From NCBI GenBank assembly GCA_021789095.1, contig JAJYJX010000005.1:1-31405 (forward strand): a DNA stretch of 31,405 nt, read 5' to 3'. The stretch's first letter is position 1. The number at the start of each line of letters is the position of its first letter. The stretch comes from a bacterium (lineage in GTDB: Bacteria; JAMCPX01). The translations under genes and the position numbers were made by a program. Shown here one piece after another: positions 1 to 20,235 of this stretch. The notes beneath the pieces are model-generated. The model was given only the letters and a program-made list of their open reading frames with translations, was not told where the DNA came from and searched no databases.

Positions 1-521
1 CCTTCTATCTCTTTGGCAGTTTTAGGTGAAAAAAATGGCTTTCCCCGCACTTTTAGACTTGTTGCGAGATTAATCATCGTTTTTAATCCAACATACTCAC
101 CATTAGCATTTGTTAATTTTTCTGACAGGTTATTCTTTGTAAAGGTTATAAAAATCAACTTTTCAAGTATCTTTCTTAATAAAAAAGCAACACAAGTGCC
201 ACTTTTCCCAAAATTCAAATTTAAGTCGTTAATTTCACTCAGAAAATCATCTCCTAAAGTATCAACAAGGGAAGCAGGGATAATTTCATCATTTAAAACT
301 ATTTCTTTAGAAGCATACTTTTGTACATATTTATAATTCCCTTTCGAGCCTTTTCTTGTTAGATATTTTGCATTCTTTAGAGCCATGCATAAATTTTGAT
401 CACTTGGATTACAATATAGTTTACTTAATTCGGCTTTCACTTCATTTAGGATTCTTGGGGTTCTAAATATATGTTTAGCCCATAATGTTTTTAACGTTGT
501 AGTTAATTTTGGTTCTGTCAT
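1..521 (-). CDS. Winged-helix-like protein with helical C-terminal region, partial (3' end off the window)
   Basis: The frame is open from an ATG at 521 to the left edge, 173 codons with no stop. A ribosome site (AAGGA) lies about 6 bases before the ATG. Residues 5-65 resemble the C-terminal halves of the two upstream genes: a start like LKTLWAKHIFRTPRILNEV, then a helix, then LTRKG and an aromatic strand ending YKYVQKY, which reads as a winged helix. From about residue 70 the protein changes character: IIPASLVDTLGDDF, then an amphipathic stretch with LLRKILEKLIF. This is loosely like the helical regions of HEPN/DUF4145-type proteins, but no catalytic RxxxxH motif is visible in the part present. 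It is third in a three-gene cassette, 24 bp after the previous stop. Function is unknown. A defence or stress role is only a guess from the AT-rich accessory setting. Confidence 0.75.
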   Translation of the reverse strand, partial: MTEPKLTTTLKTLWAKHIFRTPRILNEVKAELSKLYCNPSDQNLCMALKNAKYLTRKGSKGNYKYVQKYASKEIVLNDEIIPASLVDTLGDDFLSEINDLNLNFGKSGTCVAFLLRKILEKLIFITFTKNNLSEKLTNANGEYVGLKTMINLATSLKVRGKPFFSPKTAKEIE

Positions 522-545
522 TCTTATTCCTTGTCATTGCTCTTT

Positions 546-905
546 TTAGCTTTTAATATAATGCCATTTTTTAGCCTTACTTTCATCTGGCAACACTTTT
601 GTTCTTTTAAGAAGCCCTTTTCTAACTATTTTTCGCAAAGGAAGTGTCAAGTCTGGAGCTTTAAGATGAAAATCTCTATTTTTCAGTTCAGAAACGATAT
701 TTGCAATTTTTTGTGCCTTATTGAAAAATCCTTCATTTATGAGAGTAACTATCTTGTCAATAGTACTTCCATGCTTGTACCAATTAAGCGAGTTCGTTTT
801 ATTATTGTAAGCTCTTTTCCCTTCGAGTTCTGATATTCTTCTTTCGTGGTCATCAAGAATCTTTCTAAGTTGCTCTTCAATTATCATTTTATCATCTCTG
901 GACAT
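546..905 (-). CDS. Small winged-helix-like protein, middle gene of three-gene cassette
   Basis: This 119-residue protein starts at ATG 905 and overlaps the end of the preceding gene by 14 bases, so translation is probably coupled. An ATG six codons later (887) is an alternative start. Residues 1-35 are charged and helical, possibly a short coiled coil (EEQLRKILDDHERRISELE). Residues about 48-119 carry the domain shared with both neighbours: IDKIVTLINEGFFNKAQKI, a helix, a hydrophobic LTLPLRKIVRKGLLKR recognition-helix and turn, and a final strand KKWHYIKS. The EGFFNK core is identical to that in the 892-1260 gene. No enzyme motif is seen. It could be a DNA-binding or protein-interaction adaptor. 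Function is unknown. Confidence 0.78.
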   Translation of the reverse strand: MSRDDKMIIEEQLRKILDDHERRISELEGKRAYNNKTNSLNWYKHGSTIDKIVTLINEGFFNKAQKIANIVSELKNRDFHLKAPDLTLPLRKIVRKGLLKRTKVLPDESKAKKWHYIKS

Positions 906-1260
906 AAACCCATTTTTTCTCTTGTTTTATTCTTCTTAATTCTTTACCTTTTACTAGGCCTAAAACAATTGGCGACAAAGTAGTAATTGGAATAAAAGTT
1001 CCTTGTTCTTCAATGCCTTGCTTTATTTCAGATAAACCTTTTGGTTTATTAAAAAAACCTTCTGCAAGGAACTCCCTCACAGTATCAGTTATTGTTGGCT
1101 TTGAGTTTGCTTTCCCCTTAACAAATTTTTTTAATTCTTTTGCAGGAGTTTCAGCTTTCTCTTTGCCTTTATATAGGTTTATAATTTTTAAAATTTCTTC
1201 TGATGACCCTTCGATAATAATCTTTGTACCATCCTTTGTTTCAATATTTGCTTTAGCCAT
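892..1260 (-). CDS. Small winged-helix-like protein with N-terminal beta-hairpin, first gene of cassette
   Basis: This 122-residue protein starts at ATG 1260 with AGGAG 8 bases upstream and a clear promoter just beyond. Residues 1-30 (ANIETKDGTKIIIEG then SSEEILKII) look like a beta-hairpin followed by a helix. After a Lys-rich linker, residues about 56-122 hold the shared domain: TVREFLAEGFFNKPKGLSEI, a helix, LSPIVLGLVKGKELRRIKQ, and a final strand KKWVYVQR. This is the pattern of a winged helix in which the final aromatic strand forms the wing. It is the first gene of the operon and overlaps the next by 14 bp. No catalytic residues are recognisable. Such a protein could autoregulate through the repeats over its own promoter, but that is inference. 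Confidence 0.8.
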   Translation of the reverse strand: MAKANIETKDGTKIIIEGSSEEILKIINLYKGKEKAETPAKELKKFVKGKANSKPTITDTVREFLAEGFFNKPKGLSEIKQGIEEQGTFIPITTLSPIVLGLVKGKELRRIKQEKKWVYVQR

Positions 1261-1284
1261 TTTTTAGTCTCCTGAATAATAAGA

Positions 1285-1314
1285 ATAATAATGTAATAGT
1301 ATAATAATGTAATA
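1285..1314. repeat. Tandem 14-bp repeat over the cassette promoter (candidate operator)
   Basis: ATAATAATGTAATA occurs identically at 1285-1298 and 1301-1314, a 16-bp period. The two copies cover the -10 element, the spacer and the start-site region. Two identical sites in that position would suit a repressor, but the sequence is very AT-rich, so simple-sequence origin is possible. Confidence 0.45.
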
Positions 1315-1325
1315 TTTATTGTCAA
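1298..1325 (-). promoter_or_regulatory. Sigma-70-type promoter of the three-gene cassette
   Basis: On the minus strand TTGACA (1325-1320) is followed by a 16-base spacer and TATACT (1303-1298). It lies about 40 bases before the ATG at 1260, with AGGAG between. The -35 is a consensus match and the -10 has one mismatch. Confidence 0.7.
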
Positions 1326-1672: not shown

Positions 1673-2437
1673 TTATCTCCAAACACATTTTTTTTCGAGC
1701 AAACCTGGTTTGGATTTGTACACGGTGTTTTTGCCTTTGCCTATGCGGGTGATGGTGTTTGATTCGACAAGCCCGTGGAGCATGCGGTTGACGGTGAGCT
1801 TGGGGAGGCTGAGTTTGTTCATGCAATCTTTCGCACTTGTAGCGTCCTTTGATTTTATAAACTCAAGCAGTTCTATGCTTCTTGCATCAGGAATAGAAGG
1901 TGTATCCGGATTGTGGTTAACAGGATCATGGTTCGCATGTGCCTGCTGCTTTATTCTTGAACTAAAAGCCGCCTTGGATACAAAGGCAAGCGTATAAAGG
2001 GATACAACCTGCAGAAATGTTCTTTCAAGCTCATCAGGCATGTGCTCTGTTACATGCAGTGCAACCGTAAGTACTGCCGTAAGATATATAAGCCCGAGCA
2101 TGAATACGAGCATCTCAGCTCTCTTCAGCCTGCTTGCAAGCTCGGACTGTTCCAATACGGTAGCTGATGATCGCGCACTGAGCCACCGCGTGAACTCCTT
2201 TTTGCCCATGTAAGCAAGCTGAAGCGCAAGGTAGGCCGAAGTTGTAAGCTCCATTGCCTTTATACTGTTCGGCTGTTTCAGAGCAAGGAAGGCGCGGATA
2301 AAGGGTGTTACGTTTATCCAGTCCCACAGTATCAAACCGATCTGGACAATGGTTGCAATCCACAGCAAAACGAAGATTATGTCCCCGAATTCACGCTCAA
2401 CCTTTAGCAAATTTTTGTTGTAGGTATTATTATTCAT
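1673..2437 (-). CDS. Membrane protein with C-terminal winged-helix domain
   Basis: The protein has 254 residues from ATG 2437; only a weak AAGG lies just before the start. Hydrophobic segments at about 18-40, 107-128 and 138-158 look membrane-spanning, with a weaker one near 62-78. After a His/Asn/Pro-rich linker (166-180), residues 186-244 look like a winged helix: a helix ELLEFIKSKDATSA, then a helix-turn-helix KLSLPKLTVNRMLHGLVES, then a basic wing ITRIGKGKNTVYKSK. The layout suggests a membrane-anchored one-component regulator or a membrane protein that binds DNA directly. Nine TGATACGAA-like sites lie upstream (2506-2663) and are its obvious candidate targets. The family is not recognised by name. 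Neighbouring exbD is only a same-strand gene upstream and is separated by 347 bp. Confidence 0.75.
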   Translation of the reverse strand: MNNNTYNKNLLKVEREFGDIIFVLLWIATIVQIGLILWDWINVTPFIRAFLALKQPNSIKAMELTTSAYLALQLAYMGKKEFTRWLSARSSATVLEQSELASRLKRAEMLVFMLGLIYLTAVLTVALHVTEHMPDELERTFLQVVSLYTLAFVSKAAFSSRIKQQAHANHDPVNHNPDTPSIPDARSIELLEFIKSKDATSAKDCMNKLSLPKLTVNRMLHGLVESNTITRIGKGKNTVYKSKPGLLEKKCVWR

Positions 2438-2784: not shown

Positions 2785-3210
2785 TTAACGGGACGGCGGC
2801 TGGGGAGATACCTGGTCTGTCGTTGCTATTGCAAGCCTGTGGAGGCCTGCGGCACGAGCAGCTTCCATGACATCAACGACCCTGCCGTGGAGCACGTCCT
2901 TGTCAGCTTCTATGATAACGAGGGTGTCAGGCGCTTTCGCTGCTATTGATTCAAGCTCTGTCCTGAGCACACTCGTATTGACCTCTTTTTTATCGTAAAA
3001 GATGCCGCCATTCGCATATATGAAGATCCTGACATCGCCTTTTGGCTTGAGCATGACATCACCTTTTGCATGAGGCAGGTTTACCTTTATGCCCGGCGAC
3101 GAGATAAAGGATGTCGAGAGCATGAAAAATATCAGCAGGTTGAGGAACACATCGACCATGTTTATGACATCTATATGAAGTTCGTGCTTTTTTTTTATAC
3201 TGAAATCCAT
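2785..3210 (-). CDS. exbD: ExbD/TolR-family proton-channel subunit
   Basis: The protein has 141 residues from ATG 3210. The layout is classic: a short cytoplasmic N-terminus, one membrane helix (about 15-37) with the conserved proton-pathway Asp at residue 20 in INMVDVFLNLLIFFML, and a periplasmic domain with the family's VIIEADKD strand near residue 100. ExbD/TolR works with ExbB/TolQ to couple the proton motive force to an outer-membrane or envelope partner. The ExbB-like gene is immediately upstream, 6 bp apart. No TonB or TolA homologue is in the window, so the partner is unknown. ExbD and TolR cannot be told apart here. The C-terminus ends in a Pro-rich tail. Confidence 0.9.
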   Translation of the reverse strand: MDFSIKKKHELHIDVINMVDVFLNLLIFFMLSTSFISSPGIKVNLPHAKGDVMLKPKGDVRIFIYANGGIFYDKKEVNTSVLRTELESIAAKAPDTLVIIEADKDVLHGRVVDVMEAARAAGLHRLAIATTDQVSPQPPSR

Positions 3211-17512: not shown

Positions 17513-18169
17513 CTAACGAAAAAGTTCGTTACAAAATTCTGCTATTTTTGTAAGTTCACAGATACTTTCTGCTAACCAATGTATATCGTTGTGCATAGGA
17601 TGTGCACCATAATTCCGTAATTCCCAGATCGTCATTAATAGAGTTAGCGATAAACTCGTTTTTTTCTCCTCGTTTGTTGCCCATTCCGCTAAATTTTTAA
17701 ATAAGCCCTTCCATTCTGAATTACCTTCCATTCTCCACCCTTCATGTAGACCAAAAAAAAATTCTCTTGGGGTAGTTACTTCTTTTATTTCACCTGACTT
17801 TTTCTTTAATGTGATAGTTTTATTTATTCCTTTTGGATTAAGATTAATCCAATATGCGAATCTAAGAGCAGATTCATATATAGGGTATGTTAACTCAACG
17901 ATAACTGAGTGCAGTTCATACTCAAAAGGACTTAATCTATAAATTCTTATGAGTCTTTCAAATCTTTTCTTAATCTCTTCAGGAACATTATCAGAAAGTT
18001 TTGGGATTGTTGATATTCTTCCATCAATTGTGTCAGGCGTTAGGGGCATCAATGATCCGAGATTCCTTTCATCCATCTTTACTGGAAATATGAAGCTTTG
18101 TTCCTTTGCTTTTTGCCTATAAGCATCTCCCTCAGCCCTTATTTCATCCAGTTGTTTTGGTTTATCCAT
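17513..18169 (-). CDS. HEPN-motif protein, candidate RNase-type defence effector
   Basis: The protein has 218 residues from ATG 18169 (no strong ribosome site). The C-terminal region is helical and holds RNYGAH at 185-190, an R-x4-H motif as in the HEPN RNase superfamily, preceded by TLLMTIWELRN and followed by an aromatic helix. Upstream helices include SPFEYELHSVIVELTYPIYESALRFAYWI (about 80-108, in parts) and a conserved-looking FFFGLHEGWRMEGNSEW segment. HEPN proteins with this motif cut RNA in toxin-antitoxin, abortive-infection and other defence systems. No MNT nucleotidyltransferase partner is nearby. The location in a tRNA-integrated island fits defence cargo, which is inference. Confidence 0.65.
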   Translation of the reverse strand: MDKPKQLDEIRAEGDAYRQKAKEQSFIFPVKMDERNLGSLMPLTPDTIDGRISTIPKLSDNVPEEIKKRFERLIRIYRLSPFEYELHSVIVELTYPIYESALRFAYWINLNPKGINKTITLKKKSGEIKEVTTPREFFFGLHEGWRMEGNSEWKGLFKNLAEWATNEEKKTSLSLTLLMTIWELRNYGAHPMHNDIHWLAESICELTKIAEFCNELFR

Positions 18170-20021: not shown

Positions 20022-20163
20022 ATTAACTCTCTTTGCCTTGTTTATAACCTCATAACGGTATTGTCAATATCGGAGAGAATTGATTTGTGTGCTAAAGGTC
20101 AAAAACAGCCATAGGCAGTGCTGGCGGAAACAATGAAACGTCTAAGTAGTTGAAAAATACCAA

Positions 20164-20235
20164 GCGCCCGGGGGGATTTGAACCCCCGACCTGCGGATTC
20201 GTAGTCCGACGCTCTATCCACTGAGCTACGGGCGC
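20164..20235 (-). tRNA. tRNA-Arg (anticodon ACG)
   Basis: The cloverleaf is clear on the minus strand: acceptor GCGCCCG/CGGGCGC, D stem GCTC/GAGC, anticodon loop CTACGAA with ACG, and T stem GGGGG/CCCCC around TTCAAAT. The outermost anticodon-stem pair looks mismatched. CCA is not encoded, and the base after the acceptor (20163) reads as U. Its 3' 45 bp are repeated at 16870-16914, so this gene is the integration target of the island. Confidence 0.95.

What the first reader, a model, noticed from the sequence alone, without database searches (positions are those of the whole stretch)
1..1325. Three-gene cassette built on one winged-helix-like domain
Genes 892-1260, 546-905 and 1-521 share a domain. 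All three align over a LxEGFFNK- or IFRTP-type start, a helix, an L...LxRKG turn and a closing aromatic strand (KKWVYV, KKWHYI, YKYVQ). Each carries a different extra part: a beta-hairpin, a coiled-coil-like segment, or a helical C-terminal domain. The genes overlap or nearly touch and share one promoter in AT-rich accessory DNA. Serial duplication with divergent attachments suggests a multi-component complex, possibly for defence. I do not know it as a described system.
Basis: partly seen in the sequence, partly recalled or inferred. Interest (0 to 1): 0.7.

Follow-up and report, generated by a model that had tools for sequence, protein, structure and literature searches.

The report
Winged-helix cassette carrying HEPN-like effector
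Three short neighbouring genes are diverged copies of one DNA-binding-type domain, the last fused to a domain of a family best known for RNA-cutting toxins; scattered relatives pair the same domain with interchangeable toxin or nuclease-like genes, sometimes inside restriction systems, so this looks like a small unnamed bacterial defence module.

Summary
Genes 892-1260, 546-905 and 3-521 (minus strand, one promoter-like site, AT-rich DNA) share a winged-helix (wH) domain. Genes 1 and 2 are clearly homologous; gene 3's N-terminus is weaker but far above shuffles. Gene 3 is cut by the contig end. The local-duplication idea is not supported: each domain is nearer to domains in other phyla than to its neighbours. 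Relatives are rare (about 1% of sampled genomes) and scattered over phyla. In all 13 loci with sequence downstream of the wH gene(s), the next gene is an effector or its remnant. There are three unrelated classes: DUF4145/HEPN, a second HEPN-like family, and a PLD-like protein matching phage-defence candidate PDC-S05. Two relatives sit inside restriction-modification operons (HsdR-HsdS-wH-HEPN; Mod-wH-HEPN-Res); others adjoin Mrr, SIR2-like and Eco57I-methylase genes. Best reading: a toxin-type effector module with paralogous wH subunits that bind DNA and/or hold the effector, acting as an infection-triggered or guard effector. Defence is inferred from relatives; nothing in this window shows it. 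No library or paper searched describes this arrangement.

The parts
892..1260 (-). gene 1 (P0002, 122 aa): N-terminal beta-hairpin + helix, linker, C-terminal winged helix
1171..1260 (-). gene 1 N-terminal hairpin-helix domain (MAKA..GT..EG..EE; residues 1-30), shared with relatives that carry a different wH (L016, L062)
895..1104 (-). gene 1 winged helix (residues 53-122)
   Evidence: AlphaFold pLDDT 82-87; Z 11.1 to Fur DNA-binding domain
546..905 (-). gene 2 (P0001, 119 aa): N-terminal helical/coiled-coil-like segment + winged helix
552..767 (-). gene 2 winged helix (residues 47-118)
   Evidence: hhalign E 4.6e-8 to gene-1 family; 2.8e-10 to the wider wH profile
3..521 (-). gene 3 (P0003, 173 aa seen, cut by the contig end): winged helix + DUF4145/HEPN-like domain
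315..506 (-). gene 3 winged-helix-like domain (residues 6-69)
   Evidence: hhalign E 3.7e-5 to the wH family, 0/300 shuffles
3..284 (-). gene 3 partial DUF4145/HEPN-like domain (residues about 80-173); the stretch holding the LG(D/N)xxAH motif is missing
   Evidence: hhalign prob 95.6, E 1.2e-8; profile search E 8.5e-11
1298..1325 (-). sigma70-like promoter TTGACA-16-TATACT, 11/12
1282..1313 (.). two head-to-tail 16-bp repeats (15/16 identical) across the -10 region; candidate operator, not seen at the relatives' genes

Best explanation
The cassette is a toxin-type effector module. Gene 3 encodes the effector: a winged helix fused to a DUF4145/HEPN-like domain, most likely an RNA-cutting (or RNA-binding) domain used for cell arrest. 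Genes 1 and 2 encode small paralogous winged-helix subunits that pair with gene 3 and with DNA. They keep the effector inactive and/or place it on DNA, and probably repress their own promoter. When phage or other foreign DNA upsets that complex (or, in the relatives embedded in restriction-modification operons, when the R-M enzyme is attacked or overwhelmed), the effector is released and shuts the cell down, in the manner proposed for HEPN proteins linked to R-M systems. In related loci the effector slot is filled by another HEPN-like family or by a PLD-like protein, so the wH subunits are the constant part and the killing part is exchangeable. Shown: wH homology, fold of gene 1, HEPN-like match of gene 3, conserved wH-then-effector order, R-M embedding in two relatives. 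Inferred: complex, silencing, trigger, RNase activity, defence role.
For: Shared wH domain. Gene 3 C-terminus matches DUF4145-type effectors (three of the four effectors in that profile pass the Pfam PF13643 cut-off). In 13 of 13 loci with sequence downstream, the wH gene(s) are followed directly by an effector or its remnant: DUF4145/HEPN in the window, L016, L060, L061, L062 (truncated); a second HEPN-like family in L010 (truncated), L011, L012, L056 (damaged), L058; PLD-like in L008, L009, L015. PLD partners match PADLOC PDC-S05 at 6e-11 to 3e-15. R-M embedding: HsdR (PF08463)-HsdS (PF01420)-wH-HEPN in G927; Mod (PF01555)-wH-HEPN-Res (PF04851)-DUF1016 in G940. Neighbours elsewhere: Mrr_cat, SIR2-like and Eco57I methylase. 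The cassette is absent from 8 sister genomes and the site differs in the six examined. DUF4145 is classed as HEPN, and HEPN proteins in R-M operons are proposed to be held inactive by R-M subunits (PMC3710099).
Against: No defence gene is seen in the 2 kb on the window side of the cassette, and the other side is missing. The four full-length DUF4145-type relatives read LG(D/N)xxAH or similar without an R at the spacing of the canonical HEPN Rx4-6H motif, so catalysis is uncertain; in gene 3 that stretch is missing. Gene 3 could not be folded (pLDDT 37). The candidate operator is not conserved at other loci. None of the small wH proteins matches a PADLOC family convincingly.
Confidence: 0.5

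Rival explanations
1. A plain toxin-antitoxin module: the wH proteins are DNA-binding antitoxins/autorepressors and the HEPN-like protein the toxin, serving stabilisation of mobile DNA rather than phage defence.
For: Short overlapping genes, one promoter with a tandem repeat across the -10, antitoxin-like small wH genes upstream of a toxin-like gene, sporadic distribution.
Against: Up to four different wH genes precede one effector (L010, L058); the effector itself carries a wH; two relatives sit inside R-M operons, and the proteins are nearly absent from plasmid records.
Confidence: 0.25
2. A transcription-regulator cluster: three wH proteins that together regulate other genes, the DUF4145-like domain being a non-catalytic dimerisation or RNA-binding part.
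For: wH domains are commonly DNA-binding regulators; closest folds are Fur, PadR, MecI/BlaI, Zalpha; canonical HEPN catalytic motif not seen in full-length DUF4145-type relatives.
Against: The slot after the wH genes holds three unrelated effector classes incl. a PLD-like PDC-S05 match; R-M embedding.
Confidence: 0.15
3. A DNA-maintenance (partition-like) cassette, as hinted by the weak profile match to the plasmid partition protein AspA.
For: AspA is the best sequence match of the wH profile in the Protein Data Bank, E 0.005.
Against: The match is weak and covers only the generic wH; no ParA/ParB-type gene was noticed beside the loci.
Confidence: 0.04

Closest known systems
HEPN effectors in restriction-modification operons (PrrC/RloC, DUF4145-type; Anantharaman et al. 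2013, PMC3710099)
   Same: HEPN-like domain gene embedded in R-M operons in two relatives; proposed silencing by partner proteins and release on infection
   Different: Here the partners are one to four small paralogous winged-helix proteins, and gene 3 itself carries a wH; the window locus shows no R-M gene
Effector-associated domain (EAD) systems (Kaur et al. 2020, PMC7159879)
   Same: one small non-enzymatic domain present in several adjacent genes, one copy fused to a variable effector
   Different: EADs there are mostly alpha-helical and tied to NTPase cores; here the shared domain is a winged helix and no NTPase is seen
PDC-S05 phage-defence candidates (PADLOC)
   Same: the PLD-like partner of three relatives matches this model (best E 6e-11 to 3e-15)
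   Different: the match covers only the PLD-like half; the wH partner genes are not part of it; the window has an HEPN-like effector instead
Type II toxin-antitoxin modules with DNA-binding antitoxins
   Same: small DNA-binding-type gene(s) upstream of a toxin-type gene, one promoter
   Different: several wH paralogues per locus, wH also in the effector

Membership tests
Winged-helix domain proteins | helix-helix-helix-beta hairpin (wing) fold | tested here: met
   gene 1: AlphaFold H57-67 H76-85 H92-104 E108-111 E116-119, Z 11.1 to Fur DNA-binding domain; genes 2 and 3 by profile homology only
DUF4145 / HEPN superfamily (gene 3 C-terminus) | significant match to the family | tested here: met
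   not to Pfam directly, but E 1.2e-8 and 8.5e-11 to a profile of four relatives, three of which pass the PF13643 cut-off
DUF4145 / HEPN superfamily (gene 3 C-terminus) | catalytic Rx4-6H motif | tested here: inconclusive
   gene 3 is cut before the motif; the four full-length relatives read G(D/N)xxAH without R at that spacing
HEPN effector of an R-M system (PrrC-like guard) | gene inside an R-M operon | tested here: inconclusive
   true in relatives G927 and G940; not seen in the window, where one side is off the contig
HEPN effector of an R-M system (PrrC-like guard) | silenced by partner, released by infection | not testable with these tools
   needs experiment
Effector-associated domain systems | same small domain on several adjacent genes, one copy fused to an effector | tested here: met
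   wH in genes 1, 2 and 3, gene 3 also carrying the effector domain
Effector-associated domain systems | adjacent copies more similar to each other than to others | tested here: not met
   identity table and tree
Effector-associated domain systems | an NTPase core (MoxR-vWA, GTPase, STAND) | tested here: inconclusive
   none in the window part or noticed at the relatives; the far side of the window locus is missing
PADLOC-DB defence families | window proteins match a model | tested here: not met
   only weak partial hits, best E 5e-4 over 47 residues

The most novel reading that the evidence does not exclude
An undescribed, modular class of bacterial immune systems in which a set of one to four paralogous winged-helix subunits (some with a constant hairpin-helix N-terminal domain) forms the sensor/silencer and an exchangeable effector (DUF4145/HEPN, a second HEPN-like family, or PLD-like protein) does the killing, either free-standing or plugged into type I and type III R-M operons.
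Probability: 0.35. Interest if true: 0.72.

Novelty: new variant of a known kind. Interest (0 to 1): 0.52.

Why it matters
If right, small 'hypothetical' wH genes next to HEPN or PLD genes, easily taken for stray regulators, are subunits of one defence module type with swappable effectors. That gives a search rule (wH family profile, then read the next gene) for finding effectors in uncultured bacteria, where known defence models find nothing, and a testable link between R-M systems and built-in back-up killers.

Tried and rejected
Pfam, NCBIfam, PADLOC and PHROG scans of the three window proteins gave no convincing family. A PADLOC RT_UG30 hit to gene 3 (E 5e-4, 47 residues) was set aside as a short match without a reverse transcriptase. 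tblastn of genes 1 and 3 in plasmids, and of gene 3 in phages, found nothing; gene 2 gave one weak plasmid hit, E 0.2. Five IMG/VR scans with gene 1, gene 3, a gene-1 alignment, the second HEPN family and the PLD family gave no confirmed relative. AlphaFold of gene 3 alone failed (pLDDT 37) and was not used for a fold search. BLAST of gene 3 against the L016 effector alone was not significant (E 0.29); the profile was needed. Matches of the wH profile in G152 were BlaI-like regulators and judged unrelated. The wH-like parts of the PLD and second-HEPN effectors are not recognisably the same family as the cassette's wH by profile; only the PLD N-terminus and the C-terminus of the L016/L062 hairpin-domain proteins match each other (E 3.6e-5). 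The 1673-2437 membrane protein with a MarR/IclR-like C-terminus scored near shuffle level against the family (18.4 vs a shuffle maximum of 18.1) and is not counted as a part. The missing end of gene 3 was not found on another contig. No paper found describes the arrangement.

Full report
What is there. The window is a whole contig (C67, 31,405 bp) of a genome held as 203 contigs; only nine genomes are held for its phylum. On the minus strand at its left end lie three ORFs: 892-1260 (122 aa), 546-905 (119 aa) and 3-521 (173 aa, open at the contig end). The first two overlap by 14 nt and the next gap is 24 nt. Upstream is TTGACA-16-TATACT with an AGGAG ribosome-binding site, and two head-to-tail 16-bp repeats (15/16) across the -10. 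These repeats are the only such pair in the window, and none arose in 3000 dinucleotide shuffles, but they do not recur at relatives. GC is 0.31. In six sister genomes the neighbouring ExbD-type gene (2785-3210 in the window) has other genes beside it, and none of the eight sister genomes held has the cassette: this is accessory DNA.

The shared domain. Genes 1 and 2: blastp E 1e-5, hhalign E 4.6e-8, and recovery of gene 2 by a gene-1 profile at E 2.8e-6. Gene 3 residues 6-69 match the wH family over its full length at E 3.7e-5, with a score of 27.9 against a shuffle mean of 9.1 (sd 2.1, maximum 22.4, 0 of 300). Gene 1 folds as beta-hairpin-helix, a loose linker and a confident winged helix, closest to Fur, PadR, Zalpha and linker-histone wH folds (Z up to 11.1, 70 residues, 2.4 A). 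The tree and identities place each domain nearer to domains of other phyla than to its neighbours (gene 1: 49% to G562, 42% to a Vogelbacteria protein, 24% to gene 2; gene 2: 31% to G940). The set is therefore an old family assembled or kept together, not a local duplication series; with 65-residue domains and long branches the tree itself is weak.

Gene 3 is the effector candidate. Its C-terminal half shows no Pfam hit. It matches a profile of four DUF4145-type proteins at hhalign probability 95.6, E 1.2e-8, and in a genome search at E 8.5e-11. Three of those proteins pass the PF13643 cut-off. DUF4145 is placed in the HEPN superfamily by Anantharaman et al. 2013 (PMC3710099). The stretch carrying the LG(D/N)xxAH motif lies beyond the contig end. 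In the full-length relatives that motif lacks an R at canonical Rx4-6H spacing, so ribonuclease activity is a supposition.

Relatives and their neighbours. Clear gene-1-type relatives were found in 5 of 386 bacterial genomes drawn as relatives (10 at E<=0.01, some of them chance), 4 of 379 Patescibacteria, 4 of 295 Nitrospirota and a few genome contigs. Fifteen loci were read. Two end at a contig edge just after or within the wH gene. In all 13 others the wH gene or genes are followed by an effector-type gene or its remnant. Five have a DUF4145/HEPN protein (window; L016; L060 in G927; L061 in G940; L062, truncated). Five have a second HEPN-like family (L010, truncated, after four wH genes; L011; L012; L056, damaged; L058 after four wH genes); L011 and L012 are 38% identical over the full length, and two members (L056 and a Natronomonas plasmid protein) keep an Rx6H motif. 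Three have a PLD-like protein with an HTH-type N-terminus (L008, L009, L015) matching PADLOC PDC-S05 at 6e-11 to 3e-15. The effector classes were assigned from family scans and pairwise comparison, not by activity.

Defence context. In G927 the order is HsdR, an intervening gene, HsdS, wH, HEPN. In G940 it is Mod (in two ORFs), wH, HEPN, Res, DUF1016. In G509 the HEPN gene is followed by a SIR2-like gene and an Eco57I-type methylase, and in G233 by an Mrr-type gene. L012 and L015 have an HNH-type gene just upstream (weak in L015). This supports a defence link for the family. The window itself offers no such neighbour: on the readable side are a membrane protein and core genes (ExbB/D type, then pyrimidine and purine synthesis, judged from the translations).

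How it probably works. The simplest model is that the wH subunits and the effector's own wH form a hetero-oligomer on DNA that keeps the HEPN-like domain idle, represses the operon, and releases the effector on infection or on failure of a linked R-M system. HEPN proteins in R-M operons have been proposed to work in this way (PMC3710099). The exchange of effectors behind a constant small domain resembles the effector-associated-domain principle (PMC7159879), but adjacent copies are not closest relatives and no NTPase core is seen. Steps shown: homology, fold of gene 1, gene order, contexts. Steps inferred: complex, silencing, trigger, RNA cleavage, protection.

Novelty. None of the three window proteins matches a family convincingly in four libraries, and seven literature searches found no description of the arrangement. 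HEPN effectors attached to R-M, and small DNA-binding partners of toxins, are known kinds; the wH-paralogue set with swappable effectors appears to be a new variant.

Noticed in passing
window 17513-18169 (-): 218-aa protein ending ..IWELRNYGAHPMHNDIHW.., a canonical-looking HEPN Rx4H motif, in a second AT-rich stretch (GC 0.31-0.35, 17-20 kb) beside tRNA-Arg 20163-20235; no Pfam, PADLOC or NCBIfam hit.
   Followed up: partly
window 1673-2437 (-): 254-aa membrane protein with a C-terminal MarR/IclR-like winged helix just upstream of the cassette; not found at the corresponding site in six sister genomes.
   Followed up: partly
L061 1116-7079 (G940): A wH + DUF4145/HEPN gene pair lying between mod (in two ORFs) and res of a type III R-M operon, followed by a DUF1016 gene.
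   Followed up: partly
L010 100-1849 (G212): Four consecutive wH genes and a HEPN-like gene whose resemblance to relatives breaks off after about 55 codons, with unrelated, insertion-sequence-like sequence beyond.
   Followed up: partly
L037 3450-4646 (Natronomonas pharaonis plasmid PL131): Archaeal relative of the second HEPN-like family with an intact Rx6H motif, followed by a 66-aa protein resembling the hairpin-helix N-terminal domain of gene 1.
   Followed up: no
L016 6001-6558 and L062 3398-3949: The hairpin-helix N-terminal domain of gene 1 is joined here to a different wH, which matches the N-terminus of the PLD-like effectors (hhalign E 3.6e-5): the parts look exchanged between loci.
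   Followed up: partly
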